34,523 bases of DNA from Bacteroidota bacterium (GTDB lineage Bacteria > Bacteroidota > Rhodothermia > Balneolales > Balneolaceae), in contig PZPG01000020.1 of the NCBI GenBank assembly GCA_003045995.1, positions 1 to 34,523 on the forward strand, in the 5' to 3' direction. A program made the position numbers and the translations under genes. A model generated the notes under the pieces. The model saw only the letters and a list, made by a program, of their open reading frames with translations, was not told where the DNA came from and did no database searches. The stretch's first letter is position 1. The number at the start of each line of letters is the position of its first letter. This document shows, piece after piece, positions 13,130-34,523 of this stretch.

Positions 13130-16024
13130 TTGCAAAAAAATATTGTCATACGGGGTGCTCGAGAGCACAATTTGAAGTCGGTGGATCTGGATATTCCACG
13201 CGAGAAGCTAGTGGTGTTTACGGGGCTGTCGGGGTCGGGGAAGTCTTCGCTGGCGTTTGACACGATCTATGCGGAGGGGCAGCGGCGGTTTCTGGAGTCG
13301 CTTTCGGCGTATGCACGGCAGTTTTTGGGGATGCTGGAGCGGCCGGATGTGGATTTTATTGACGGGTTGTCGCCGGTGATTTCGATTGACCAGAAGACGA
13401 CCAACCGGAATCCGCGATCGACGGTGGGAACGGTTACGGAGATTTATGATTTTTTGCGGTTGCTGTATGCGCGGACGGCGATTCCGTACTCGTATCTGAC
13501 CGGAAATAAGATGGAGAAACAGACGTCGGATCAGATTGTGGAGGCGGTGTTGCGGTTGCCGAAGGGGACGAAGGCGTATTGTATGGCGCCGGTGGTGCGG
13601 GGGCGGAAGGGACATTACCGGGAGTTGTTTGATCAGATGCAGCGTCAGGGGTTTGTAAGGGCGCGGGTGGATGGGGAGTTTATTGAGCTGGAGGGGGAAA
13701 TTCGGCTGGATCGGTACAAGACGCATAATATTGATGTGGTGGTGGATCGGTTTGTGGTGTCGGAGAAGAGCGAGCAGCGTATCCGGGATTCGATTTTTCT
13801 GGCGTTGGAGATGTCGGATGGGCATTTGGTGCTGGGAGTGCAGGGGGTGGCTGGTGAGCATGGTACGGCTGGTGAGCATGAAGGGCAGGGGGTGGCTGGG
13901 CAGGAGACGGCTGGGCAGGAGATGCACGATCTGATTTTTTCGAAGCATCTGTACGATGTGGAGAGCGGGTTGTCGTATGAGGATCCCGCGCCGAACTTGT
14001 TTTCGTTTAACTCGCCATATGGTGCGTGTCAGGAGTGCAACGGGCTCGGGTATCGATATGATGTACACCGGAGCTTGGTGATTCCCAATCCGGAAGAGTC
14101 GGTGGAAGATGGCGGCATTCGGTTTTTGGGTAAGCCACGGGATATTTTCCTGTTTAAGCAGTTGGATGCGGTGCTCAAAAGCGTGGATCTGGATTTTTCT
14201 GTGCCGCTGAAACAGTATACGGAGGAGGCTCTGGCACTTCTGTTTGATGGCGGCGGGGACAAGCGTTTTAACGTGTTTTACGATTTTCGCAAGCAGACGG
14301 TTTCCTACAAACACAAATTTGAGGGGCTGCGGTCGATCATCCGACGACAATATGTGGAGAGCAAGTCGCCGAAGCAACGGGATAAGGCGAAGGCATTTAT
14401 GTCGAAGGTATTGTGTGATGCCTGTGGTGGCGGTCGCCTGAATCGGGAGGCCCTCTCCTACCGGCTTGATACCTATTCGATCCACGACTTGGTGAAGATG
14501 GATATCCGGGAGCTTCGGCGAACGATTGGGACGATGACGCTGACCGACCGGCAGCGAACGATTGGGCAGCTGGTGCTGAAGGAGGTGATCGATCGGCTCG
14601 ATTTTCTGCTGAACGTGGGTCTGGATTATCTTACTCTCGACCGGGAGGCGGCTACGCTGAGTGGCGGGGAGGCACAACGGATTCGGCTTGCGACCCAGAT
14701 CGGTACGCAGCTGGTGGGCGTTCTCTATATTTTGGATGAGCCGAGTATTGGATTGCATCAACGCGATAACCGAAAACTAATCGATTCACTGAAAACGCTG
14801 CGGGATTTGGGAAACAGTGTGATTGTGGTGGAGCATGACCGGGAGACGATTGAGAGTGCCGATTTTGTGGTGGATATGGGACCGGGTGCGGGAACGCAGG
14901 GCGGAGAGATTGTAACGAAAGGGGCACCGGAGGAGTTGGATCCGTTGGCCATGACCACGAAGTTTCTGCGCGGGGCCGAGCAGATTGACTATCCGGAAGT
15001 ACGCAGAAAGGGTTCGGGCAAGGCGATTCGGATCAAAAACGCTCGCGGGCACAATTTGCAATCGGTAGATCTGGAGATACCGCTCGGGACGTTTGTGGCT
15101 GTGACGGGGGTGAGCGGGAGTGGAAAGAGCTCTCTCATCAACCAGACCCTGGTACCGATTCTTTCAAATGAATTTTATCGCTCGAAGGATGTGCCGCTTC
15201 CGTACGACAAAGTGAGTGGCCTGAACCACATCGACAAAGTGATTTCGATTGATCAGAGCCCGATCGGGCGGACGCCGAGGTCGAATCCGGGGACGTATAC
15301 AAAGGCGTTTGATAAGATTCGGGAGTTGTTTGCGGAGTTGCCGGAGTCGAAGATTCGCGGGTACGATAAGGGCCGGTTTAGTTTTAATGTGAAGGGCGGG
15401 CGGTGTGAAACATGCCGCGGGGATGGGGTGCGGAAGATTGAGATGAATTTTTTGCCGGATGTGTATGTGCCTTGCGAGACGTGCCGTGGTCATCGGTATA
15501 ATCGGGAGACGCTGGAGATTCGGTATCGGGAGAAGTCGATTGCGGATTTGCTGACGATGCCGATTTCGGATTTGTTGCCGTTTTTTGAGGCAGTGCCATC
15601 GTTGCAACGGGTTCTGGAGACGCTGGAGTCGGTAGGGCTGGGGTATTTGACGTTGGGGCAATCGAGTACGACGCTGAGTGGCGGGGAGGCGCAGCGGATG
15701 AAGTTGTCGCGGGAGTTGTCGAAGATCGGGACGGGGGATACGTTGTATGTGATGGATGAGCCGACGACCGGATTGCATTTTCAGGATGTGCGGATGCTGG
15801 TGGATGTGGTGCAGAAGCTGGTGGATAAGGGGAATACGGTGATTGTGATTGAGCACAACATGGATCTGATTAAGGCGGCGGATTGGGTGATTGATATGGG
15901 GCCCGAGGGCGGGAGTGGCGGCGGCCGGATTGTGGCGCAGGGGACGCCGGAGGAGGTGGCTGGGTCGGAGGAGAGCCGAACCGGGGTGTTTTTGCGGGAG
16001 GAGCTGGAGCGGGCGGCGCAGTAG
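13130..16024 (+). CDS. uvrA: Excinuclease ABC subunit A
   Basis: The damage-recognition ATPase of nucleotide excision repair, acting as a dimer with UvrB. It has 964 residues. The first ABC half has Walker [10 protein letters not shown] (32-40), and the N-terminal signature is [16 protein letters not shown] with Walker [13 protein letters not shown]. The second half has [25 protein letters not shown] and [12 protein letters not shown]. The central zinc finger CETCRGDG...[10 protein letters not shown] is complete. In zinc module 1 only the CQEC pair is present; the partner pair (CPxC in E. coli) is replaced by non-Cys residues, as I recall for Bacteroidota-like UvrA. Around residues 236-264 a Gly/Glu/His/Ala-rich repeat insert ([14 protein letters not shown] and so on) has expanded. 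The start codon is TTG, after TAGGATT. Confidence 0.97.
13843..13925 (+). repeat. Tandem-repeat insertion inside uvrA
   Basis: Repeated GGTGGCTGGTGAGCAT and GGCTGGGCAGGAG type units of 15-18 bp encode a degenerate AGEH/AGQE repeat of about 28 residues that interrupts the otherwise conserved region before zinc module 1. The frame is kept. Confidence 0.8.
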
Positions 16025-21789: not shown

Positions 21790-21832
21790 AAGCCTCTCTG
21801 CAGATCGATCCGATCGGCGGAGAGGCTTTTTT
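21790..21832 (+). terminator. Terminator of the tRNA-Gly transcript
   Basis: The perfect 9-bp stem AAGCCTCTC (21790-21798) / GAGAGGCTT (21820-21828) is extended by a smaller inner hairpin, then a T run to 21832. It abuts the stop of the convergent tlpA-like gene. On minus the hairpin is present but the T run is not, so it chiefly serves plus. Confidence 0.9.
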
Positions 21833-22550
21833 AGTTGTTACTGTTCCCCTCTTCCAGCAACGGTTTGATTTTGGAAAGCAATTCTGTTTTGGTCACTGCT
21901 CCTGTTGCAAAGTAGCGAAAATGACCTTCGCGGTCGATAATGTATGTGGTTGGTATTCCCATTGTAGGTCCGTACAGATCCATCACTTCTCCAGAGCGGT
22001 CGATTATGATCGGATAGGTTACCTGGTACTCTTCAACAAAAGGTACTACTACCGACTCCCCTTGTTCATCCACCGAAACGCCCACAATCATGAGTCCGTC
22101 TTCCCGATACGCTTCGTAGAGGCTCACCAGGTCGGGAGTTTCTTTTTTACAGGGTGCGCACCAGGTGGCCCAGATGTTCATGATGATGACACTACCCCGG
22201 GTTTGTTGCATATCGAAGGTTGTTCCATCCAGGAGTGCCGTTCGAAACAGTGGTGCAGACGCTTCGGTGGTGGAGGGGAACAGAGGGGCGGATCGCGGGT
22301 CGATTCGTTCAACAGGGGTTGGTTTGCTGCCGGACGAGTTGCTACCGGACGAGTTGCTGCCTGCTTGCTTACTCCCAGAAGGGTTGTCCGGGCTCGGGCT
22401 GCATGACATCAACCCGAAGAAAAAGAAACATGTGGCAATGACCATAAAATGGAGAAGGGGAAGGCTTCCTAAGGGTCGACGACTGGATGAAATGGCTGGG
22501 GCGGTTGGAGTGGATTGTGTGCGTGATTTGGATGGTGTGGCGTGTTTCAT
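21831..22550 (-). CDS. TlpA/ResA-like thioredoxin lipoprotein
   Basis: A 239-residue membrane-anchored thiol reductase, probably keeping apocytochrome CxxCH cysteines reduced before heme attachment (CcmG/ResA role). The start overlaps the upstream gene by 4 nt. A lipoprotein signal ends in FFFFGLMSC with the lipid-carrying Cys at 50; unusually, some 35 residues precede the hydrophobic core. A Ser/Gly/Lys low-complexity linker (SGSNSSGSNSSGSKP) follows, then a thioredoxin fold with active site WCAPC (Cys131, Cys134), the cis-Pro GIPTTYIID, and a TlpA-type central insert (DEQGESVVVPFVEEYQV). The signal core FFFFGLM is encoded by a dispersed 10-mer copy (22408-22417). It is the last gene of the ccmF operon. 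Confidence 0.93.
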   Translation of the reverse strand: MKHATPSKSRTQSTPTAPAISSSRRPLGSLPLLHFMVIATCFFFFGLMSCSPSPDNPSGSKQAGSNSSGSNSSGSKPTPVERIDPRSAPLFPSTTEASAPLFRTALLDGTTFDMQQTRGSVIIMNIWATWCAPCKKETPDLVSLYEAYREDGLMIVGVSVDEQGESVVVPFVEEYQVTYPIIIDRSGEVMDLYGPTMGIPTTYIIDREGHFRYFATGAVTKTELLSKIKPLLEEGNSNN

Positions 22551-25130: not shown

Positions 25131-25270
25131 ATGTGATCCTCATGGGATTCTAGTGATCCTCATGGGACTCTAGTTCTCCTCATGGGACTCTAGTTCTCCT
25201 CGCGGGATTCTAGTTGTCCTCACGGGATTCCAGTGATCCTCATTGGATTCTAGCCATCCCATGCAGATTC
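25131..25270. repeat. Seven tandem 20 bp units between ccmF and cytochrome b
   Basis: The strict 20-bp period starts at 25131 and unit form is TAGTKMTCCTCAYGGGAYTC. Six units are well kept and the seventh (25251-25270) is degenerate. No spacers occur, so it is not a CRISPR array. Two-helical-turn spacing between divergent cytochrome-related operons suggests cooperative binding of a regulator. Confidence 0.9.
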
Positions 25271-25410: not shown

Positions 25411-26268
25411 ATGAAATTTGTTTTTTATAGCGTCGTCGGGCTGGCATGGCTTGGGATCGTGGTTTTGCCGGGGGTGTATGGATGGGAGTACTATATGACG
25501 CCGGTACCCGAACGTCCGTTTACGGAGCTGCACGATCAGCTTAAACCTACCGGTTTCATTGGGCATGGGTATGGGGTGATTGGGTCCTTGTTTATGATCG
25601 TTGGTGTGGCGACCTATACGTTGCGGAAGCGGGTGGCTTGGTTTGCGAAATGGGGAAAACTTCGGAGCTGGTTGCGGTTTCATATTTTTTTGTGCACGAC
25701 GGGGCCGGCGCTTGTGGTTTGGCATACGTCGTTTAAGTTTCAGGGGGTTGTGGCGATCTCGTTTTGGAGTATGGTGATTGTTGTGGCGAGCGGGGTACTT
25801 GGTCGGTATGTATACAAGCGGATTCCAAAAACAGAGGATGGATATTTTAAAAGTGTTCAGTTTGTTGTGGATGAGAAACTTGCACTGAGAAAGGAATTGG
25901 ACGCGATGGTGTCGCTGAGTCCTGTACAGGAGTCGATGTTGGGGCTCACGGCGGGACAGTTAAAGTTTACAAATCCATGGGCGGCACTCTATGCAGCAAT
26001 TCTATTTGATGTGAGGGGCCTGTTTTCCTGGAGCAGGGATCGGAGGGTTACCACAGAGCTTGCGTTGTCCAGACAGGAGCGGGAGTCGTTTCGGTCTCTC
26101 GTGCGTCGGTATCGCTGGAGAACCCGACAAGAGTTTTTGATTGAGCCGATGCAGAAGATTTTTGGATACTGGCATGTGTTTCACATTCCGCTGGCGACAA
26201 TTATGTTTTTGGTGCTGGCTGTGCATGTTTTTGTATCGATTCTTTTTGGATACACATGGATTTTTTAA
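25411..26268 (+). CDS. Membrane cytochrome b, probably two-heme
   Basis: A 285-residue inner-membrane protein with five likely membrane segments (about 1-24, 52-70, 88-106, 113-136, 257-284) and a basic cytoplasmic loop (about 137-250). Two segments each hold a His pair spaced as in cytochrome b and b6 helices: His91 and His105, and His258 and His272 (13 residues between). This is the pattern expected for two b hemes stacked across the membrane, one towards each side. Further His residues (41, 52, 255) could bind a quinone or another heme. I infer quinol oxidation that passes electrons to periplasmic c-type cytochromes encoded next. The family is not recognised beyond cytochrome b-like. First gene of the cluster. 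Confidence 0.75.
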   Translation: MKFVFYSVVGLAWLGIVVLPGVYGWEYYMTPVPERPFTELHDQLKPTGFIGHGYGVIGSLFMIVGVATYTLRKRVAWFAKWGKLRSWLRFHIFLCTTGPALVVWHTSFKFQGVVAISFWSMVIVVASGVLGRYVYKRIPKTEDGYFKSVQFVVDEKLALRKELDAMVSLSPVQESMLGLTAGQLKFTNPWAALYAAILFDVRGLFSWSRDRRVTTELALSRQERESFRSLVRRYRWRTRQEFLIEPMQKIFGYWHVFHIPLATIMFLVLAVHVFVSILFGYTWIF

Positions 26269-26323: not shown

Positions 26324-27007
26324 ATGAAATACCGACTTCTACTACTCGCAGGAACGATTATTTTTGGCATCACCGCGTTTGTGCTTACAACGGACCGGTT
26401 TCAGTCTTCGCCGCATCAAACCCTGACCGATGCAGAACTTGCGGAGAGGGCGCGACAGATTGCTTCCGGGATGAACTCCCGAGAGGGTTCTGGGAGTGGA
26501 TCCACAAGTGGAAGTGCGGCAGGAGATCGAAGCACGGCTGGGGCGATGCAACCTCCGGTCGATACCGAACCAACGGCAGACAATGTCTCGACCAGTTACT
26601 ACGAGCGTGTAAAGGATCTGGAAAGCTTTCTGGCTACGAATCCTGCAGATACCACTCACATGCTTCGGCTTGCGAGGTTGCTTCATCAGGGGCATCAATT
26701 GCAGGAGGCGACCGAATGGTACAACCGGCTACTTGAAATCAATCCACAGCAGGAGCAGGTACGGTTGGATCTGATTAACGCGTACGGGCAGGCGGGTCAG
26801 TGGGAGTTGGCGCTTTTGGCTACAGATGAACTTTTGGAGATCCGGGAAAATCATCCGGGAGCGCTGTACAATAAGGCGGCGATTTATGCGAATATGGGGC
26901 GGAACAACGATGCAGCGGCGATCTGGGAAGCTCTTTCCGAGCAGGAAGCAGGTACTACAATCGGCACGATGTCCAAAAATGCACTATCCAAACTGGCGGC
27001 TATGTGA
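26324..27007 (+). CDS. Membrane-anchored TPR protein
   Basis: A 227-residue protein with an N-terminal membrane anchor (MKYRLLLLAGTIIFGITAFVL), a Gly/Ser/Ala-rich linker (GSGSGSTSGSAAGDRST) and two to three tetratricopeptide repeats from about residue 90 (LRLARLLHQGHQLQEATEWY, then ALLATDELLEIRENHPGALY). The TPR part faces the periplasm if the anchor is a simple N-in signal. It resembles the CcmI/NrfG-type TPR modules that hold apocytochromes for heme attachment. That role fits the position just before multiheme cytochromes, but is inferred. The start lies 55 bp after cytochrome b. Confidence 0.8.
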   Translation: MKYRLLLLAGTIIFGITAFVLTTDRFQSSPHQTLTDAELAERARQIASGMNSREGSGSGSTSGSAAGDRSTAGAMQPPVDTEPTADNVSTSYYERVKDLESFLATNPADTTHMLRLARLLHQGHQLQEATEWYNRLLEINPQQEQVRLDLINAYGQAGQWELALLATDELLEIRENHPGALYNKAAIYANMGRNNDAAAIWEALSEQEAGTTIGTMSKNALSKLAAM

Positions 27008-27055: not shown

Positions 27056-27127
27056 TTCGAGGAATACCGGTCCTTCGAGGAATACCGGTCCTTCGAGGAA
27101 TACCGGTCCTTCGAGGATTGCCAGTGC
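27056..27127 (+). repeat. Four 18 bp units at the start of the 20-heme cytochrome gene
   Basis: Units at 27056, 27074, 27092 and 27110 read TTCGAGGAATACCGGTCC, the last one changed to TTCGAGGATTGCCAGTGC. Each unit carries GAGG and an imperfect palindrome (GGT..TTC...GAA.ACC). The fourth supplies both the ribosome site and the GTG start of the cytochrome. Confidence 0.9.
27113..27116 (+). promoter_or_regulatory. Shine-Dalgarno site for the 20-heme cytochrome
   Basis: GAGG with seven bases to the GTG at 27124. It decides the start: the resulting N terminus is a textbook signal peptide. Confidence 0.75.
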
Positions 27128-28917
27128 TTTCATTTCGATCCATACTTCTTGCTGGAATCGGAATGCTTTTCCTTTCTGCCGTGAGTCAGGCGCAACTGAT
27201 CTCTCCGGGAAAACTTTCAAACGCTCACTCCTTCCTGAATGGTATCTCGAACTGCGTGCAGTGCCATGAAATTCGAAACCCATCCATCTCTAACGAGCGT
27301 TGTCTCGATTGCCATGTACCTATCGACTCCACCATCGTGCAAATGCGGGGAGTTCACGGACAGCCGGATGTGTTGGATCAGAACTGTTCGAACTGCCATC
27401 AGGAACACTTCGGTGAGGAGTTTGATGTTCTTCGGTTTGATTCAGCGGGATTTGATCACTCGATCACTGGATTTGAACTGATTGGTGCTCATGCATCGGC
27501 GGAATGTCAGGATTGCCATGGAAACAGCGATTGGATCCGCGATCAGACCGTGCTGAATTATCAGGAAAAGTTCGGGTTGATAGGATCCCATTCCACGTTC
27601 CTGGGACTGGAGCCGACATGCGAGAGTTGCCATCTGGAAGAGTCCGTACACGGAGATCAGTTTGCAGGTGAATCCTGTGCCAACTGTCATAACACAGTAG
27701 ACTGGGAAGACATCAGCCAGTTTGATCACAATGAAGCACGATTTGCACTCACGGGACTTCATGTGGAACAGACATGCGAAAGCTGTCATACGCCCGAGCG
27801 GGTACTGGAAGGTGCACTAGCGGGAACTGAAGTGATCCGATTCCGCGGGCTGGAGTTTGAAACGTGCGAGAGTTGCCACGAAGACGTCCATGAAGGTCGG
27901 CTGGATGAACTGGCCGGTGTACCGCAAACCTGCGAATCCTGCCACGGAACGGAGGGATGGCATCAGTTTGATGAGCGCTTCCCGGAAGATCTGTTCCCAC
28001 ACGAGGAAACCGGATACGCGCTCATTGGGGCTCACGAATCGCTGGATTGCGAAAGTTGCCATGCTGTGAGAGAGGATCTTGTGATTGCGAATCAGTGGGT
28101 GGATGGGACGGCTGACTATACATATCCAGAGCCTGTGTCGGATACCTGTATGGATTGTCATGTGGACTATCACGAAGGGGTGTTTGTGCATACTGGCGAT
28201 GGTGCGGAATGTTCCACGTGCCATACAGAAACAGCCTGGATCCCCTCCAATTTTGGCCTGGCACAGCATGAGCAGCGCTCTCGCTTTCAGTTAACCGGTG
28301 CGCATGTGGTTACCCCTTGTTCGAGCTGCCATATTATGGAACCCAGCACGGTTACCGGAGAGGAAAAGCCTCAGTTTCGGTTTGATGACCTGAGTTGTGA
28401 GGGTTGCCACGAAGAAGACAACCCGCATGGAGATTCATTTGCCTCGGCAGAGGATGGATGCGACACCTGCCATGCAACCACCTCATGGAACCGTGATATT
28501 ACCTACGATCATGAGGCAGAAACCGGGTATGCACTCACAGGTGCTCATGCATCGCTAAGCTGCCAGTCGTGCCATTTTGATTCAGGTGTGGGCTCAGGTG
28601 CATCGAACCGCCAAGCATTCTCCTTGTTATTCGCCGCGCTTCCAGACGATTGTATGAGCTGCCACGAGAACGACAGCCCGCATCAGGGGCAGTTTGCCGA
28701 GTCGGTACTGGGGCCAGCCTGCGAAGAGTGCCATACCACGGAGCGGTTTACATTGGATGAGTTCGATCACTCTCGCACTTCATTCCCGCTGGATGGTGCC
28801 CATATTGAGGTTGCCTGCGCAGACTGCCATGTACAGGAAACAGCTGCGGACGGTTCTCTCTTTACTCGCTTTTTCCCTCTTTCCACCGAATGTTCTGCAT
28901 GCCATGGCGATCAGTAA
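27124..28917 (+). CDS. Multiheme cytochrome c with 20 CxxCH motifs
   Basis: A 597-residue exported protein with 20 CxxCH heme sites, spread along almost the whole chain. The GTG start gives a signal peptide (VLSFRSILLAGIGMLFLSAV, cleavage at SQA-Q). An earlier in-frame GTG at 27004 overlaps the TPR stop, but would add 40 residues of repeated RGIPVL with no signal logic. The chain repeats a module: FDH or a close form, then F/Y-x-L-x-GAH, four residues and CxxCH. The GAH His is a good candidate for the distal axial ligand. Six such modules are visible. No membrane segment other than the signal is seen, so a soluble periplasmic or surface electron wire is likely. A copy of the dispersed 10-mer (27572-27581) encodes FGLIG. 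It overlaps the next gene by 14 nt. Confidence 0.92.
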   Translation: MLSFRSILLAGIGMLFLSAVSQAQLISPGKLSNAHSFLNGISNCVQCHEIRNPSISNERCLDCHVPIDSTIVQMRGVHGQPDVLDQNCSNCHQEHFGEEFDVLRFDSAGFDHSITGFELIGAHASAECQDCHGNSDWIRDQTVLNYQEKFGLIGSHSTFLGLEPTCESCHLEESVHGDQFAGESCANCHNTVDWEDISQFDHNEARFALTGLHVEQTCESCHTPERVLEGALAGTEVIRFRGLEFETCESCHEDVHEGRLDELAGVPQTCESCHGTEGWHQFDERFPEDLFPHEETGYALIGAHESLDCESCHAVREDLVIANQWVDGTADYTYPEPVSDTCMDCHVDYHEGVFVHTGDGAECSTCHTETAWIPSNFGLAQHEQRSRFQLTGAHVVTPCSSCHIMEPSTVTGEEKPQFRFDDLSCEGCHEEDNPHGDSFASAEDGCDTCHATTSWNRDITYDHEAETGYALTGAHASLSCQSCHFDSGVGSGASNRQAFSLLFAALPDDCMSCHENDSPHQGQFAESVLGPACEECHTTERFTLDEFDHSRTSFPLDGAHIEVACADCHVQETAADGSLFTRFFPLSTECSACHGDQ

Positions 28918-30142
28918 ATCCAAAAATATCAACCAACAACGGACTCGAATCCGCGGCTTTGTATCTGCCATGACTCTGTCCTTCGCCTTGACCCTGGGCC
29001 TGCTACCCTTAGGATGCGGGAATAAGGTCCATGCCCAGTCCGCCCAGGCTGCACAGTCCGCCCAACCTGCCCAGGCCTCACAACCTGCCCAGGCCCAAAT
29101 CCGCGCAACCCAAACCAGCACCAACCCCCACGGCAACCTCAGCGCCGACCTCACCTGCGAACTATGTCATACTTCCGATGGCTGGGTTCCGGCCAAAGAA
29201 CCTCTCGACTTCAACCACAACACTCAAACCTCCTTCCCACTCATCGGTTCCCACCTCGAAACCACCTGCGAATCCTGTCATTTCAACCTGCAATTCAGTG
29301 AACCAATGATCACAGGCGAAGGTTGCGAATCCTGCCACGTTGATGTCCATCAGGGGGCCTTCACCGAAAGCTGTACCGACTGCCACAATCAAACCCGATT
29401 CACCGACATCGATGCCGATCAGATTCATCAGCGTACTCACTTCCCCCTCATCGGGGCACACAGCCAGATCACCTGCGAGTCCTGCCACGCTAATCAATCC
29501 GACGGCCACTTCGCCATCGATAGCGGCACCGAATGCATCGATTGCCATCAAGAAGACTACCTCGCTGCCGAAAGCATCGACCACGTCGCCAGCGGTTTTG
29601 CCGAAACCTGCGAAGATTGCCACTCGATGCTGGTCTGGTCCGGCGTGCAGTTCGACCACACCACGGTCTCCGGCGGATTCGCCCTCCTCGGAGCCCACGA
29701 TGCTATCCGATGCGAATCCTGCCACCTGCTCCCAACCTACGACCTTCCCTTCCAGCCACCCCCCACCAGCCAGGACGACTGCTACGCCTGCCACGCACAA
29801 GACTATGAAGACGAGCACGCGGGATCCGGCTTCCCCACCGACTGTACCCTTTGCCACAACGTCAACGACTGGGACGATGCCCGCTTCGATCAGCACGATC
29901 AACTCTACTTCCCGATCTTTTCCGGTGAACACCAAGGCGAATGGAACAACGACTGCAGCACCTGTCATGTCGTCCCCGACGATTTCAGCATCTTCAGCTG
30001 CATCGACTGCCACGAACACAATCAACCCGATATGGACGATGAACACGACGGCGTAAACGGTTATATCTACCAGAGTGAAGCCTGCTACTCCTGCCACCCA
30101 AATGGAAGCGAAGACGACGCGGAGGGAGGCGATGATGATTAA
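28904..30142 (+). CDS. Multiheme cytochrome c with 13 CxxCH motifs
   Basis: A 412-residue exported multiheme cytochrome. I start at ATG 28904, which overlaps the previous gene by 14 nt; the open frame itself begins earlier. The N terminus is basic, then hydrophobic (FVSAMTLSFALTLGLLPLGC). Either that Cys is lipidated or cleavage occurs at VHA-Q just after. A Gln/Ala/Ser/Pro repeat linker follows (SAQAAQSAQPAQ), then 13 CxxCH sites in modules of the same FxLxG(A/S)HxxxxCxSCH kind as the 20-heme protein. The C terminus is acidic. It is clearly paralogous to the truncated cytochrome at 33469 (shared NPHG-SADL, VDVH-GAF, VSGGF-LLGAHD). Its codons end mostly in C, unlike that paralogue and other neighbours. 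It overlaps the barrel gene by 11 nt. Confidence 0.9.
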   Translation: MAISKSKNINQQRTRIRGFVSAMTLSFALTLGLLPLGCGNKVHAQSAQAAQSAQPAQASQPAQAQIRATQTSTNPHGNLSADLTCELCHTSDGWVPAKEPLDFNHNTQTSFPLIGSHLETTCESCHFNLQFSEPMITGEGCESCHVDVHQGAFTESCTDCHNQTRFTDIDADQIHQRTHFPLIGAHSQITCESCHANQSDGHFAIDSGTECIDCHQEDYLAAESIDHVASGFAETCEDCHSMLVWSGVQFDHTTVSGGFALLGAHDAIRCESCHLLPTYDLPFQPPPTSQDDCYACHAQDYEDEHAGSGFPTDCTLCHNVNDWDDARFDQHDQLYFPIFSGEHQGEWNNDCSTCHVVPDDFSIFSCIDCHEHNQPDMDDEHDGVNGYIYQSEACYSCHPNGSEDDAEGGDDD

Positions 30143-31892
30143 ATCAACCCGACTCATACCCCGTATACCCCGTTTGTCCGGCAATTTTATGCATTGCGCT
30201 ACGATGGTTTCACTTCTACTTCTGTTTATGTTTCGGGTTGATGCGGATGCGCTCCAGGCCCAGGAACGCATTCGGGCAGAGGTACAGGTAATCCAGATTG
30301 CCGCGGATCAAATCTACCTTGAATTGGACACAGAAGACCTGGCAATGCCAAAAGAAGGCGCCATTTTGCTCACCTACCGGGATGCGGATTACCTTGGCTC
30401 GCTGGAGCTGATGGCCGCCTTTCCGCCACGGTTGCTGGTGAGGTATGCTGAAACCGTATTCCCGCTAACTCGCGGGGAGATTATTACGCTTGAGTGGGGG
30501 GCAGGTGTAGAGTTGGGAGGTGAGATCGTGACGGGAGACGAGGCTGGCGGTGGTGGGGTTAGTGGTGCCGATCCCGGCGCCGATGCCGATCCCGGCGCCG
30601 ATGCCGATGCCACTGCCGCGGAAGGGGATTCTCTGGGGAGTGACCGGCGTTCGATTTTGGACCGACCTGTAACACGAGGCTCAACGACCCGTTCCTCGCG
30701 GTCTAGCCGGCAGAGACAAATCCCACAGTGGAGCGGAAGGGTCCTGCTCGGTACCCGTGCATCTCAAAGCGTGACAAACTGGGGGGGGCAGACCGACGAA
30801 TCCAATACCCGATACAGTTCCATCTCCTACTCCAATCTCAGTTTTCGCGGCAGGGATCTGCCGGGTGGATGGTCGGTGCAGGCGCAGGGCAGACTCAGCT
30901 ACCGAGTTCAAACCGGATCGTTCCGGAATGACAACTATCTAATGAATATCTACAATCTGAAAGCCGCAAAAGTTTTTGATTCCATTCCTCTGGAAGTGCA
31001 AATAGGTCGCTTTTACAACCGCTTCGAAATGATGCACTCTTTTTGGGACGGAGCCATGGCGCATTTGCAAATGGGCAATTGGGGAGGCGGGCTTACAGGC
31101 GGGTTTCAACCCGTACGAACCACAGAGGGTCTCTCCTTTTCCTACCCGAAAGCAGGCGGGTATCTGCACTATCGACTTCGAACAGAGTCGGTTCGCTGGA
31201 CCATTCAGGCAAATGCAGCTGGCGTATTCCCATCGAATGAGGCGTTTCGCTCTTACGCCGGCATCGAGCAGAAGTTCCGCTATGATGGAGTCGGAATGGA
31301 TACAGAATTTCAGGCACACCGTCATCCGGATTCCGCAGAATGGCGCTGGACCCGCATTCGATTTCGGGCTTTTGCCGATCTCAGTGAGCAGCTCGAAGTA
31401 CGTGCTTCATACCAGCGCAGGATCTCTTATTCCCCGTTTCGAACCTTCTCTGAATTTTCCAACACACGCAATGAATATGGCCTGACAGCCACACTGTCCG
31501 CTTCAAACTGGCGGTTTATACAGGGTATGCGGTGGAATCATCAACCCGAAGCAAAATCTACTTCGTACCAGTCCCGAGTGCAGTGGAACCGGTCGCCGTT
31601 GTGGGATATCTCCTGGTCTGTTTATGGCTACTATTGGAATGGGCAGGAACGTGGGAGTAGCCTCAATTCGGGTGTTACTGCTTCCAAATCGCTCGAAAAA
31701 TGGCGTCTTCAGAGTGGTCTGAGTGCCTACCGGTCGAATTTTGTGAACAACCGGTACACGCAGGGATCGCTGTTTTTGAATGCCGATTACCGGCTTACAC
31801 GTGATCTTTCGGTTCAGGCGCGCTATCAGGGAGTGTTAGGTGAGTTTACGAGCCAGAATGCATTGTCCCTATCACTATGGAAGAGTTTTTAA
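30132..31892 (+). CDS. Outer-membrane beta-barrel protein, candidate porin partner of the cytochromes
   Basis: A 586-residue exported protein. The start ATG (30132, or 30135) lies right after GGAGGGAGG and overlaps the 13-heme gene stop. A signal peptide (to about ALQA-Q) is followed by a small N-terminal domain, an Asp/Gly/Ala repeat linker (GADPGADADPGADAD, from an 18-bp repeat at 30570-30605), and from about residue 190 a long series of alternating-hydrophobicity strands rich in Tyr, Trp, Arg and Gly, ending in Phe (LSLWKSF), the usual barrel-assembly signal. No CxxCH is present. Between multiheme cytochrome genes this is the expected place for a barrel that holds a cytochrome across the outer membrane, as MtrB and PioB do. 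Homology to them is not shown. Three dispersed 10-mers fall in it (30143, 30233, 31540). Confidence 0.8.
   Translation: MMIKSTRLIPRIPRLSGNFMHCATMVSLLLLFMFRVDADALQAQERIRAEVQVIQIAADQIYLELDTEDLAMPKEGAILLTYRDADYLGSLELMAAFPPRLLVRYAETVFPLTRGEIITLEWGAGVELGGEIVTGDEAGGGGVSGADPGADADPGADADATAAEGDSLGSDRRSILDRPVTRGSTTRSSRSSRQRQIPQWSGRVLLGTRASQSVTNWGGQTDESNTRYSSISYSNLSFRGRDLPGGWSVQAQGRLSYRVQTGSFRNDNYLMNIYNLKAAKVFDSIPLEVQIGRFYNRFEMMHSFWDGAMAHLQMGNWGGGLTGGFQPVRTTEGLSFSYPKAGGYLHYRLRTESVRWTIQANAAGVFPSNEAFRSYAGIEQKFRYDGVGMDTEFQAHRHPDSAEWRWTRIRFRAFADLSEQLEVRASYQRRISYSPFRTFSEFSNTRNEYGLTATLSASNWRFIQGMRWNHQPEAKSTSYQSRVQWNRSPLWDISWSVYGYYWNGQERGSSLNSGVTASKSLEKWRLQSGLSAYRSNFVNNRYTQGSLFLNADYRLTRDLSVQARYQGVLGEFTSQNALSLSLWKSF
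30570..30605 (+). repeat. 18 bp tandem repeat in the barrel gene
   Basis: Two identical 18-bp units GATCCCGGCGCCGATGCC (30570-30587, 30588-30605), encoding DPGADA twice in the linker between the N-terminal domain and the barrel. Confidence 0.85.
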
Positions 31893-31907
31893 TGAAATAA
31901 TTTGTAC

Positions 31908-33410
31908 ATGGAAGAGTTTCTGATCCAAAATGAGCAGTTGGTGATATGGCTGATCGCGGCGTTGCTGTTTGGGTTGTTTGCCGTTCCGTTTTGGATCAAA
32001 AAGATCCGGCTGGAGAAGCATACGCATGTGCAGGATATCCGTGCAGAGGAGTTTGGCCTGAAGGAGCCGGTTTCTCTGTATCCAAAGGTGAATCCGGACA
32101 TCTGCATTGGATCGGCGGGATGTGTGGCGGCTTGTCCGGAAGAGGATGTGCTGGGAATTCGGAATGGCCAAGGGGTGGCAGTGAATAAAGCGCTCTGTAT
32201 TGGTCATGGCTTGTGCGAGCGTGCATGCCCGGTGGATGCGATTACACTGGTATTCGGTAGTAAGACACGGGGTGTGGATATCCCGCGGATCCGGGAAAAC
32301 TTCGAAACCAATGTCCCCGGGATTCATATCGTGGGTGAGTTGGGTGGGATGGGGTTAATCCAAAATGCGTTTGAACAGGCTCGGCAATGTATCGAATATA
32401 TTCGCAAGGATCTGAAACCCTCTGGGCGGCGGGCGGATTCTGAAATCTATGATCTGCTGATTATCGGGTGCGGCCCGGCGGGTTTGTCGGCCACGATTCA
32501 CGCCAAGCGGGCCGGGTACCATTTTAAAACGCTGGAGAGGGAGGGAATTGGTGGAACGGTTCGGTATTATCCACGTAAAAAACTGGTGCTTACCAATCCT
32601 CTAGATGTGCCGGGTGTGGGAAAGATTCATAAGAAGCAGATTCTGAAAGAGGAGCTTATTGAGGTTTGGGAGTCGATTGTGGAGAAGCAACAGCTCGATG
32701 AGGATATTGTGACCGGGGTGAATGTGGATGAGATTCGAAGGGTGATGCCCGGGGGAGTTGGAGTTGGAGGGGATGGGTGGATAGGAGACGTGGGTGCAGG
32801 TGCGCATTCTGGTGATTGGGGTCGCTCTAGTGATGGAGGAGCAGGTGTAGTCGGGAGTGGGGATGGTAAAGGTGCTGAGGATGCTGATAATGCTGGCGCG
32901 AAACCCATCTTTGAACTGATTTGTGGGAATCAAACATGGAGATGCCGGAAAGTACTGATTGCGGTGGGTCGTCGCGGCACTCCGCGAAAACTGGGGATTC
33001 CCGGCGAGGAGCTGGATAACGTAGCCTACAGCCTTTTGGAGCCGGATCATTACACCGATGAATCGATCATGGTGGTGGGTGGAGGAGATTCGGCCATTGA
33101 AGCAGCCCTAGCCCTTAGTGAACAACCGGGCAACCAAGTATCCATATCATACCGAAAAGAAAAATTTAGCCGCCTTAAACCGCTTAACCGCTTAAAACTG
33201 AATGAGGCCTTGGAGGAGGGGCGGATCGCAGTATACCGGAAGACGAATGTGATTGAAAACCGGAAGGATTCGGTCGTACTGCAGCATGAGGATGGCCGCG
33301 AAGAGGTGATGGCGAACAACAGTCTTTTTGTTTTTGCGGGTGGGATTTTGCCAACTGCGTTTTTGGAGAAGGCTGGGATTAGAATTGATACCAAATTTGG
33401 CGAGGCCTGA
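31908..33410 (+). CDS. Membrane-anchored ferredoxin-flavin oxidoreductase
   Basis: A 500-residue protein, starting at ATG 31908. An N-terminal membrane segment (about 8-28) anchors a ferredoxin-like domain with two short clusters, CIGSAGCVAACP and CIGHGLCERACP. In each the second Cys of a normal CxxCxxCxxxCP is replaced (Ser, His). A thioredoxin reductase-like part follows with the FAD motif LLIIGCGPAGLSA and the NAD(P) motif IMVVGGGDSAIEAA; the redox CxxC of thioredoxin reductase is missing. A Gly/Asp-rich insert of about 45 residues (near 280-325) interrupts the reductase. The soluble part most likely faces the cytoplasm, so it could link NAD(P)H or ferredoxin to the quinone pool or cytochrome b. 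It lies 15 bp after the barrel gene. Confidence 0.85.
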   Translation: MEEFLIQNEQLVIWLIAALLFGLFAVPFWIKKIRLEKHTHVQDIRAEEFGLKEPVSLYPKVNPDICIGSAGCVAACPEEDVLGIRNGQGVAVNKALCIGHGLCERACPVDAITLVFGSKTRGVDIPRIRENFETNVPGIHIVGELGGMGLIQNAFEQARQCIEYIRKDLKPSGRRADSEIYDLLIIGCGPAGLSATIHAKRAGYHFKTLEREGIGGTVRYYPRKKLVLTNPLDVPGVGKIHKKQILKEELIEVWESIVEKQQLDEDIVTGVNVDEIRRVMPGGVGVGGDGWIGDVGAGAHSGDWGRSSDGGAGVVGSGDGKGAEDADNAGAKPIFELICGNQTWRCRKVLIAVGRRGTPRKLGIPGEELDNVAYSLLEPDHYTDESIMVVGGGDSAIEAALALSEQPGNQVSISYRKEKFSRLKPLNRLKLNEALEEGRIAVYRKTNVIENRKDSVVLQHEDGREEVMANNSLFVFAGGILPTAFLEKAGIRIDTKFGEA

Positions 33411-33468
33411 CATTTGTGCTTGATTTTTGGTACTATTATATGGAAATAAACAAACCTTGGGATCCATC

Positions 33469-34523
33469 ATGACATCCGCTCTCCTTCGGAATGGGAAGTG
33501 TCTGAGGTGCTACGATGCACTTATACGGGGGAGGTACGGACGGAAATGGTCTTTTTCTTGGTGTGCCTGGGTTGGGATGGTATGCGTGCTGACCATGAGT
33601 GGGTGTTGGGTTGATGTATGCCTTGCAGAGATGGGGGTAGCCGCTTGGATGCATCCGGTCTTGCCAGCCGGTACGACGAGGTATGTGCAGATGCCGGTTG
33701 CTTCCGGGTTTTCGCCGGTGGATCGTTTGACCCCGGTGCAACCAGTGAATCTGGATCCGGATACGACGCAGACGTCTTCGGACAGTGTGCAAAAGAGTGT
33801 GCATCCTAGCGTGCAAGATAGTGTGCTTAAGAGCGTGCATAATAGTGCACAAAAGAGCGTGTATAACAGTACGCAAAAGAGCGTGCGGACCAGCGTTGGT
33901 GATAATCCGCATGGTGTGTTCTCTGCCGATCTGCAATGCGAGGCCTGTCATACGTCGGAGAGTTGGGTACCGGCGCGAGAGCCCATGGATTTTGATCACT
34001 CGTCGATGACTCGTTTTGCGCTGATTGGTAGACATCAAACCGTGTCCTGTGAAAGCTGCCATACGCAATTGGTTTTTTCGGAACCGGTGATCTCGGGCGA
34101 TGGTTGTGAAACGTGTCATGTGGATGTGCATGAGGGGGCCTTTTCTGAAACTTGTTCCGATTGCCACGATACGATTAGTTTTTCTTCTGTGGACGGGGTG
34201 ATGATTCATCAGCGTACCTCGTTTCAGCTGCTGGGTGCGCACGCGGCGGTGTCTTGTGAGAGTTGTCATGATGGGCAGGCAGACGGGCATTTTGTGATCG
34301 AGGATACGGAGTGTTTTGCATGTCATGAGGATGACTACGTGGCGGCGGAGTCATTTGATCATGCAGGGCGGGGGGTTTCGACGCGGTGTGAGGATTGTCA
34401 TACGATGTTTTCCTGGGAGGATGCGTTTTATGAGCATGCGGTTGTGTCTGGCGGCTTCGAACTGCTGGGAGCGCACGATCAGGCCGATTGCGCCTCGTGC
34501 CACACGCCTGACATGGGACTGGT
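33469..34523 (+). CDS. Third multiheme cytochrome c, cut by window edge
   Basis: An open frame with no stop from ATG 33469 to the window end (at least 351 residues). The N terminus is long and basic, then hydrophobic (FSWCAWVGMVCVLTMSGC), a probable lipoprotein signal. A linker of four-residue units (SVQK, SVHP, SVQD, SVLK) precedes the cytochrome part, which starts NPHGVFSADLQCEACH. Eight CxxCH sites are visible before the edge. It is a tandem paralogue of the 13-heme protein, with module order and spacing kept. If a barrel gene follows outside the window, the whole cytochrome-barrel module was duplicated. Codons end in G or T, unlike the 13-heme paralogue. It begins 58 bp after the oxidoreductase. 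Confidence 0.88.
   Translation, partial: MTSALLRNGKCLRCYDALIRGRYGRKWSFSWCAWVGMVCVLTMSGCWVDVCLAEMGVAAWMHPVLPAGTTRYVQMPVASGFSPVDRLTPVQPVNLDPDTTQTSSDSVQKSVHPSVQDSVLKSVHNSAQKSVYNSTQKSVRTSVGDNPHGVFSADLQCEACHTSESWVPAREPMDFDHSSMTRFALIGRHQTVSCESCHTQLVFSEPVISGDGCETCHVDVHEGAFSETCSDCHDTISFSSVDGVMIHQRTSFQLLGAHAAVSCESCHDGQADGHFVIEDTECFACHEDDYVAAESFDHAGRGVSTRCEDCHTMFSWEDAFYEHAVVSGGFELLGAHDQADCASCHTPDMGL
33769..33888 (+). repeat. 12 bp tandem repeats in the linker of the third cytochrome
   Basis: About nine degenerate 12-bp units of the form AGYGTGCAAAAG or AGCGTGCATNNT encode SVQK/SVHN-like tetrapeptides between the lipoprotein signal and the heme domain. Confidence 0.8.

What the first reader, a model, noticed from the sequence alone, without database searches (positions are those of the whole stretch)
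27124..28917. Modular 20-heme cytochrome built from FDH...GAH...CxxCH units
The chain repeats a unit in which FDH (or similar) is followed by F/Y-x-L-x-GAH, four residues, and CxxCH, with further CxxCH between. The GAH His keeps a fixed distance from the heme site and probably forms its distal ligand. The same unit occurs in the 13-heme and third cytochromes, so heme number seems to have grown by unit duplication.
Basis: partly seen in the sequence, partly recalled or inferred. Interest (0 to 1): 0.6.

Follow-up and report, generated by a model that had tools for sequence, protein, structure and literature searches.

The report
Three-heme building block of heme wires
The protein is a periplasmic 'heme wire', built from a repeated block of three hemes and three extra histidines, in a gene cluster that very probably carries electrons across the whole cell envelope; its partner wire grows and shrinks by whole three-heme blocks.

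Summary
Confirmed and sharpened. The ORF at 27124-28917 has 20 CxxCH motifs. FDH...GAH-x4-CxxCH recurs at every third heme, so the true repeat is three hemes (A, B, C) with three extra histidines. Of 23 non-motif histidines exactly 20 are conserved in at least 32 of 33 orthologs; 704 of 704 units carry the FDH and GAH histidines. Heme numbers move in threes: this protein has 17, 20 or 23 in three phyla. Its downstream partner has 10 to 64, always 3n+1 in Bacteroidota (36 of 36 with the window) and 12 of 12 Acidobacteriota ORFs (counting CX2-4CH), but not in Neomarinimicrobiota. Layout and inner-membrane motifs match the 'PCC3' porin-cytochrome cluster, reported in 2017 from Proteobacteria; this variant adds a membrane-anchored ferredoxin-FAD oxidoreductase. 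One complete Acidobacteriota ORF fuses both cytochromes (51 hemes). Most likely: a continuous heme wire from inner membrane to cell exterior. Which heme the GAH His ligates is unproven: structure prediction failed; a natural co-loss favours the heme right after it. New variant of a known kind.

The parts
27124..28917 (+). m1: 20-heme cytochrome (the finding). Start GTG 27124 or upstream GTG 27004; Sec-type signal peptide by eye
   Evidence: Pfam Cytochrom_c3_2, Cytochrome_C7, Mtrc-MtrF_II-IV and Cytochrom_CIII above cut-off
27193..27432 (+). N-terminal three-heme cap of m1 (SPGxLSxAH...CxxCH..CxxCH..H..CxxCHxEHxG), shared with 7-heme cytochromes that sit next to IMP homologs on plasmids: proposed inner-membrane docking end
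27433..27702 (+). m1 unit 1, hemes 4-6 (FDH112, GAH123, X-His176)
27703..27975 (+). m1 unit 2, hemes 7-9 (FDH202, GLH213, X-His256)
27976..28245 (+). m1 unit 3, hemes 10-12 (FPH293, GAH304, X-His350)
28246..28488 (+). m1 unit 4, hemes 13-15 (AQH382, GAH394, X-His435)
28489..28743 (+). m1 unit 5, hemes 16-18 (YDH463, GAH475, X-His520)
28744..28914 (+). m1 unit 6, ends after hemes 19-20 (A and B) with FDH549 and GAH560 and no X-His
28904..30142 (+). m2: 13-heme partner cytochrome (starts with one X-His and a C heme, then whole units; conserved C-terminal three-heme cap)
30075..31892 (+). outer-membrane barrel (porin) candidate; homologs directly downstream of m2 in related clusters; no Pfam or PDB match
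25411..26268 (+). inner-membrane protein (IMP) with two WX3HX13H and SGxxG, expected to bind two b hemes
26324..27007 (+). TPR protein, membrane-anchored; present in 18 of 39 related clusters
31902..33410 (+). membrane-anchored 2x[4Fe-4S]-FAD pyridine-nucleotide oxidoreductase; one N-terminal TM, then a basic stretch
   Evidence: in 38 of 39 related clusters
33427..34521 (+). m3: second m2-type cytochrome, 57% identical to m2 over about 210 aa, cut by the contig end
22819..25068 (-). CcmF/NrfE-type heme lyase, divergent neighbour
   Evidence: below curated cut-off
21831..22550 (-). ResA/TlpA-type thiol-disulfide oxidoreductase, divergent neighbour
   Evidence: below curated cut-off

Best explanation
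The 20-heme protein (m1) is the periplasm-spanning wire of a PCC3-type porin-cytochrome conduit. Inferred chain: NAD(P)H -> membrane-anchored FAD/2x[4Fe-4S] protein -> IMP (two b hemes) -> N-terminal three-heme cap of m1 -> six FDH/GAH units across the periplasm -> through the outer-membrane barrel -> m2 outside -> extracellular acceptor. The structural quantum is a unit of three bis-His hemes: A and B are served by the FDH and GAH histidines, and C by the histidine between B and C. m1 length is nearly fixed because the periplasm has a fixed width. m2 varies because its outer end is free, and it changes by duplication or loss of whole units. Shown: the unit, the His bookkeeping, the three-step counts, the conserved cluster, a complete m1-m2 fusion. 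Inferred: bis-His ligation, cell location, direction of flow, acceptor, reason for the fixed length, and which of FDH/GAH binds A or B.
For: Exactly 20 non-motif His conserved (>=32 of 33) for 20 hemes; the other 3 occur in 3, 7 and 1 of 33. FDH and GAH His in 704/704 units, X His in 656/656 B-C linkers, no His in 634 of 701 A-B linkers. m1 hemes: 36x20 and 3x23 in 39 of 39 other clusters of the Bacteroidota set, 17/20/23 in 19 of 19 Neomarinimicrobiota and 20/23 in 15 of 15 Acidobacteriota complete ORFs. m2 directly downstream: 35 of 35 complete ones 3n+1 counting CX2-4CH, 34 of 35 by CxxCH alone. Cluster content in 39 clusters: IMP 38, FAD 38, porin 35, all found on m1's strand. IMP heme-b His invariant in 22 of 22. 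N-cap shared with IMP-adjacent 7-heme cytochromes. Complete 51-heme m1+m2 fusion in L139; L126 and L138 (cut by contig ends) run from the m1 cap into m2-type units. PCC3 definition read in PMC5566968.
Against: No structure: AF2 pLDDT 44 and 60, no PDB fold match. The porin has no Pfam or PDB match, so 'barrel' rests on position, conservation and appearance. Neomarinimicrobiota m2 proteins break the 3n+1 rule (30 ORFs including third cytochromes: 13 are 3n+1, 12 are 3n, 5 are 3n+2 with CX2-4CH). Homology to the Proteobacterial PCC3 cytochromes could not be tested. PCC3 itself is functionally untested and was down-regulated on Fe(II) in S. lithotrophicus ES-1 (PMC8788666 passages).
Confidence: 0.72

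Rival explanations
1. Same conduit, but electrons flow inward: it oxidises extracellular Fe(II), Mn(II) or another donor and feeds the quinone pool through the IMP.
For: PCC3 was proposed for Fe(II) oxidisers, with the IMP modelled as quinone-active (PMC5566968); PCC3 is called a potential iron oxidation mechanism (PMC12442390 passages).
Against: A membrane-anchored FAD/4Fe-4S pyridine-nucleotide oxidoreductase is in 38 of 39 clusters, which fits export from NAD(P)H better; PCC3 down-regulated on Fe(II) in ES-1. Reverse electron transfer to NAD+ would still fit.
Confidence: 0.22
2. m1 and m2 are mainly an electron store (capacitor) or heme store, not a through-conductor.
For: High heme density, 24.6-32.5 aa per heme in m1; a capacitor role is mentioned for PCC3 (PMC10734462 passages).
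Against: Fixed count in m1 against variable count in m2, the constant cluster with porin and IMP, and the m1-m2 fusion fit a wire with two defined ends.
Confidence: 0.08
3. The repeat is simply the known c7/c3 triheme domain concatenated, as in the 12-heme GSU1996 of Geobacter, so nothing new at unit level.
For: Pfam Cytochrome_C7 (69.5 bits, cut-off 24.8) and Cytochrom_c3_2 (89.6, cut-off 25) match; best solved profile match is 3ov0 = GSU1996, E 1.5e-9.
Against: GSU1996 has one His-Met heme per triheme domain (PMC10138318 passages), here there is one conserved His per heme; c7 places its third distal His before the second CxxCH (recalled), here it lies between the second and third; spacings are F-His 16 and G-His 5 before the Cys in most units, unlike c7 (recalled).
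Confidence: 0.25
4. The GAH His ligates heme B (or a neighbour) and the FDH His ligates heme A, against the first reader's assignment.
For: In tetraheme cytochrome c3 a His five before the Cys ligates another heme while a more distant His ligates the heme that follows (recalled, not tested here).
Against: In 31 of 31 reduced units of Neomarinimicrobiota m2 (32 detected, one dropped by eye as an ordinary C linker, L107 heme 13) the GAH His is lost together with one heme, which by context is A, leaving FDH with B; fewest changes then give GAH-A, FDH-B. GAH and the A motif are adjacent, so one deletion could remove both without proving the pair.
Confidence: 0.35

Closest known systems
PCC3 porin-cytochrome c complex (He et al. 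2017, PMC5566968; passages and sections 15 and 17 read)
   Same: Same four genes: ~300-aa IMP with SGXXG and two WX3HX13H, periplasmic multiheme protein (their median 21, here 20), second multiheme protein of very variable heme number (their median 34, here 13; 10-64 in relatives), porin; similar aa-to-heme ratio (22-39 there; 29.9 and 31.7 here).
   Different: Reported there in Alpha-, Beta- and Gammaproteobacteria; here Bacteroidota, Acidobacteriota and Neomarinimicrobiota. Adds a FAD/4Fe-4S oxidoreductase. m1 heme numbers are 3n+2 here against 21, 24 and 27 (3n) in Gallionellaceae (PMC10734462 passages). Porins here are 527-589 aa in complete Bacteroidota relatives, 605 in the window; most of theirs had many more predicted strands (up to 42).
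GSU1996 (PDB 3OV0) and other c7-type 'nanowire' cytochromes of Geobacter
   Same: Chain of three-heme domains; best profile match among solved structures.
   Different: One His-Met heme per domain there; different order and spacing of distal His (recalled); not in a porin/IMP cluster as far as recalled.
MtrA/DmsE decaheme family with MtrB and MtrC
   Same: Works alike: periplasmic multiheme wire with porin and outer cytochrome; weak profile hits (6r2q_A E 2.2e-7; TIGR03508 51 bits).
   Different: TIGR03508 score far below its cut-off of 192; porin profile finds no solved MtrB; no three-heme FDH/GAH period in the printed MtrA alignment.
7-heme cytochrome + IMP + 2Fe-2S/FAD modules on Sphingobium, Pontibacter, Methylophaga, Variovorax, Bradyrhizobium plasmids
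   Same: N-terminal three-heme cap and, next door, an IMP homolog or a hypothetical protein of that size.
   Different: No FDH/GAH repeat array; no porin or second multiheme protein noted in the neighbouring annotations.

Membership tests
PCC3 | ~300-aa inner-membrane protein with five TM, SGXXG and two WX3HX13H | tested here: met
   Window IMP 285 aa has both WX3HX13H and SGxxG. In the 18 Bacteroidota IMPs of A4: SGxxG 18 of 18, both WX3HX13H in 15 of 18. Crude hydropathy gives five TM in 17 of 18 and four in the window protein.
PCC3 | periplasmic multiheme cytochrome with about 21 hemes next to a second, variable multiheme cytochrome | tested here: met
   20 and 13 hemes adjacent; same order in relatives. 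Periplasmic and extracellular location not tested.
PCC3 | porin-coding gene in the cluster | tested here: inconclusive
   Conserved gene after m2 in 35 of 39 clusters (the 4 without it are cut by contig ends near m2); no Pfam or PDB match; barrel not modelled.
PCC3 | aa-to-heme ratio 22-39 | tested here: met
   597/20 = 29.9 and 412/13 = 31.7.
PCC3 | sequence homology to Proteobacterial PCC3 cytochromes | not testable with these tools
Cytochrome c7 / GSU1996 triheme domain | three hemes per domain and Pfam Cytochrome_C7 above cut-off | tested here: met
   three-heme period
Cytochrome c7 / GSU1996 triheme domain | one His-Met heme per domain (GSU1996) and c7 order of distal His (recalled) | tested here: not met
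   One conserved His per heme; third His lies between B and C in 656 of 656. Axial ligation itself not measured.
DmsE/MtrA decaheme (TIGR03508) | score above curated cut-off 192.2 and ten hemes | tested here: not met
   51.1 bits, 20 hemes

The most novel reading that the evidence does not exclude
A three-heme, three-histidine cassette is a universal length quantum of envelope-crossing heme wires in at least three phyla. Periplasm width selects m1 to 17, 20 or 23 hemes, while the outer wire m2 evolves now by tandem duplication of whole cassettes, up to 64 hemes. In some Acidobacteriota both halves are one polypeptide of 51 hemes reaching from the inner membrane to the outside, driven by NAD(P)H through a dedicated oxidoreductase.
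Probability: 0.45. Interest if true: 0.78.

Novelty: new variant of a known kind. Interest (0 to 1): 0.6.

Why it matters
If true, heme-wire length becomes countable from sequence: one can read reach from heme number, test whether periplasm width sets m1, and lengthen or shorten wires by whole cassettes. It also extends an orphan electron-conduit type from Proteobacteria to Bacteroidota (38 of 394 genomes, the window's included), Acidobacteriota (24 of 199) and Neomarinimicrobiota (36 of 199), at cut-offs of E 1e-10, 1e-30 and 1e-30, and ties it to a candidate electron source. The m1-m2 fusion gives a single protein on which end-to-end conduction could be measured.

Tried and rejected
AlphaFold2 on a four-unit fragment (alignment A1, 12 rows) gave mean pLDDT 44.1, and on the last five hemes of m1 (A6, 14 rows) 60.4: too weak to place ligands. 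Foldseek and VIA-align found nothing. No coordinates were available in the script box.

Chance as cause of the motif: rejected by the register count. Assembly error or odd motifs as cause of heme-count exceptions: checked. L046 becomes 40 when CX3-4CH motifs are counted; L080 has a CX3CH that makes 19; L079 has 23 CxxCH plus a CX3CH and a CX5CH near the C-terminus; L045 contains N. Four short m1 ORFs (L048, L052, L054, L061) are artefacts of my start-codon rule or, in L052, of an in-frame stop: read stop to stop each shows 20 hemes. Dropped before the m2 count: L045, L058, L059, L069 (N or contig end). Ambiguous in Acidobacteriota: L141 (odd patterns, one 23-heme ORF counted as m1), L140 (24 + 27 hemes in two ORFs); L126/L138/L139 fused and not counted as m1; L133 (Acidobacteriota) and L121 (Neomarinimicrobiota) cut by contig ends. 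In one search, one of 32 detected units (L107 heme 13) is an ordinary C linker and is dropped.

Other heme families tried: MtrA/DmsE, the MtrC/MtrF domain, c7. They match in CxxCH-rich stretches but fail as full members. Paper searches for a three-heme repeat, Bacteroidota PCC3 and Emticicia listed no description of this unit in these phyla; subscription papers are not held and most listed papers were not opened, so this is not proof of absence.

Full report
OBSERVATION. The ORF at 27124-28917 encodes 597 residues with 20 CxxCH motifs; the neighbouring ORFs at 28904-30142 and 33427-34521 have 13 and, before the contig end, 8. Listing the linkers shows that H-x4-CxxCH with G-x-H precedes hemes 4, 7, 10, 13, 16 and 19 of the first protein and the same register of the others.

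HISTIDINE BOOKKEEPING. In 33 20-heme orthologs including the window, exactly 20 non-CxxCH histidines are conserved in at least 32; the window's other three occur in 3, 7 and 1 of 33. A 25-row alignment from the same set shows the 20 motif and 20 extra histidines invariant. Over 89 proteins (three from the window, 86 from relatives) 704 units, set by register alone after the first one, all carry the FDH-type and GAH-type His; 656 of 656 B-C linkers carry the third His, and 634 of 701 A-B linkers carry none. The G His is five residues before the Cys in 577 units and seven in 92; the F His is sixteen before it in 488. One His per heme fits all-bis-His ligation; ligation itself was not measured.

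HEME NUMBERS MOVE IN THREES. The cytochrome directly downstream (m2) was complete in 35 of 39: heme numbers from 10 to 64, 34 of 35 equal to 3n+1 by CxxCH and 35 of 35 counting CX3-4CH; the window's own m2 has 13. Out of sample, 19 of 19 complete Neomarinimicrobiota m1 have 17, 20 or 23 and 15 of 15 Acidobacteriota m1 have 20 or 23 (one, in L141, of uncertain class), and all 225 m1 units there carry both histidines. Acidobacteriota m2-type ORFs obey 3n+1 in 12 of 12 with CX2-4CH, 10 of 12 with CxxCH only. Against: Neomarinimicrobiota m2-type ORFs do not (30 ORFs: 13 are 3n+1, 12 are 3n, 5 are 3n+2 with CX2-4CH); their distal halves are irregular.

WHICH HEME DOES GAH SERVE. Those irregular proteins hold a natural experiment. 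A scan of 18 Neomarinimicrobiota m2 proteins for units that start W...F-x-H but lack the GAH His gave 32; one (L107 heme 13) is by position an ordinary C linker and is dropped. In all 31 left, the heme after FDH is followed at once by the His-bearing linker of heme C, that is, one heme is missing too (29 with one His in that linker, 2 with two). So GAH and one heme, by context A, are lost one for one. This supports GAH as a ligand and favours GAH-A, FDH-B. The ends of the proteins agree with the pairing of sets: the window's and L008's m2 begin with one His plus a C heme, and m1 ends with FDH, GAH, A, B. The c3 precedent, recalled, points the other way, and GAH and the A motif are adjacent, so this stays open. 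AlphaFold2 did not help.

DUPLICATION. Within m2 proteins, unit pairs reach 99% amino-acid identity (90% in DNA) and up to 95% DNA identity, with 231- and 462-bp periods in one gene. Within m1 the best unit pair reaches 0.51 and the window's best 0.38. Of 165 m1 units, 164 have their nearest neighbour in another genome, 160 of them at the same position; of 434 m2 units, 175 have it in their own locus. So m1 is an old, frozen array, and m2 is still expanding and contracting. m3 is a whole-gene copy of m2, 57% identical over the matched 212 residues.

GENE CLUSTER. Upstream lie an inner-membrane protein (IMP; 25411-26268) and a TPR protein; downstream a barrel candidate and a membrane-anchored 2x[4Fe-4S]-FAD oxidoreductase. 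Among 39 clusters: IMP 38, FAD 38, porin 35, m2 39, TPR 18, all on the strand of m1. The four histidines of the two HX13H motifs are invariant in 22 of 22 IMPs including four from plasmid modules. The window IMP and porin match no Pfam family, and the porin profile finds no solved structure. These features match PCC3 as He et al. define it (PMC5566968, passages plus sections 15 and 17 read): porin, extracellular and periplasmic multiheme cytochromes of variable and about 21 hemes, and an IMP with SGXXG and two WX3HX13H. They listed Alpha-, Beta- and Gammaproteobacteria and noted repeats with at least one heme each. Later passages give 21, 24 and 27 hemes for the Gallionellaceae periplasmic subunit (PMC10734462), and for the two ES-1 clusters 17 and 21, and 24 and 28 hemes, with down-regulation on Fe(II) (PMC8788666). 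The window cluster is therefore best filed as PCC3-like. Direct homology to the Proteobacterial proteins could not be tested.

DOCKING CAP AND FUSION. The first three hemes of m1 form a cap that recurs in 7-heme cytochromes encoded beside an IMP homolog (or a hypothetical protein of its size) and a 2Fe-2S or FAD protein on Sphingobium, Pontibacter, Methylophaga, Variovorax and Bradyrhizobium plasmids: I infer that it docks on the IMP. In Acidobacteriota, locus L139 encodes one complete 1255-residue protein with 51 hemes that starts with the m1 cap, changes at about hemes 25-27 to m2-type units and ends in the m2 cap; L126 and L138, cut by contig ends, show the same start and transition. This is the best evidence that m1 and m2 form one continuous path.

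DISTRIBUTION. P0001 matches 38 of 394 genomes of the window's phylum, window included, but only 2 of 58 near relatives, window included. The phylum drawn around L008's genome, a named Bacteroidia MAG, gives 18 of 198, and several matches share contig numbers and near-identical coordinates with the earlier set (for example C13:76451-78094 and C13:76448-78136), so the window's phylum is Bacteroidota (inference). The m1 profile also matches 24 of 199 genomes around an Acidobacteriota MAG and 36 of 199 around a Neomarinimicrobiota MAG.

MECHANISM AND ITS LIMITS. Most likely electrons leave NAD(P)H through the FAD/FeS protein and IMP, enter m1 at its cap, run along about 20 hemes across the periplasm and through the barrel to m2. 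Direction, acceptor and locations are inferred. Inward flow from Fe(II) is the main rival.

NOVELTY. The conduit type is known. New here, as far as the searches reach (open-access papers only, most seen as listings), are its presence and frequency in these phyla, the dedicated oxidoreductase, the exact three-heme/three-His unit, the three-step rule with its exception, and the fusion.

Noticed in passing
L139 5200-8967; L126 1-3045; L138 1-3828: Acidobacteriota ORFs that start with the m1 cap and run on into m2-type units; complete in L139 with 51 hemes, with two nearly identical adjacent units (hemes 40-45).
   Followed up: partly
window 25136-25253: Array of a 20-bp repeat, 5.9 copies, in the intergenic stretch upstream of the IMP gene.
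   Followed up: no
window 27056-27117, 29032-29092, 30566-30618, 33784-33886: 18- or 24-bp tandem repeats in or at the starts of the cluster genes; the first lies between the two possible starts of m1.
   Followed up: no
window 31902-33410 and 13130-16024: Low-complexity inserts: the FAD protein is 502 aa against mostly 433-448 in relatives, with a G/D-rich stretch; the UvrA here carries an AGE/AGQ-type repeat stretch by eye.
   Followed up: no
L102-L121 (Neomarinimicrobiota): m2 proteins with many CX3CH/CX4CH sites and two-heme reduced units in their distal half, plus a third cytochrome of 8-12 CxxCH next to the porin.
   Followed up: partly
L002, L003, L085, L087-L089: A 7-heme cytochrome + b-type IMP + 2Fe-2S/FAD module on plasmids of Sphingomonads, Methylophaga, Variovorax, Bradyrhizobium and Pontibacter, often near copper or metal-resistance genes and DUF1622 proteins.
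   Followed up: partly
G000:C67:9663-10028: Another c7-type cytochrome candidate in the window's own genome (two Cytochrome_C7 matches over cut-off in a 216-aa frame).
   Followed up: no
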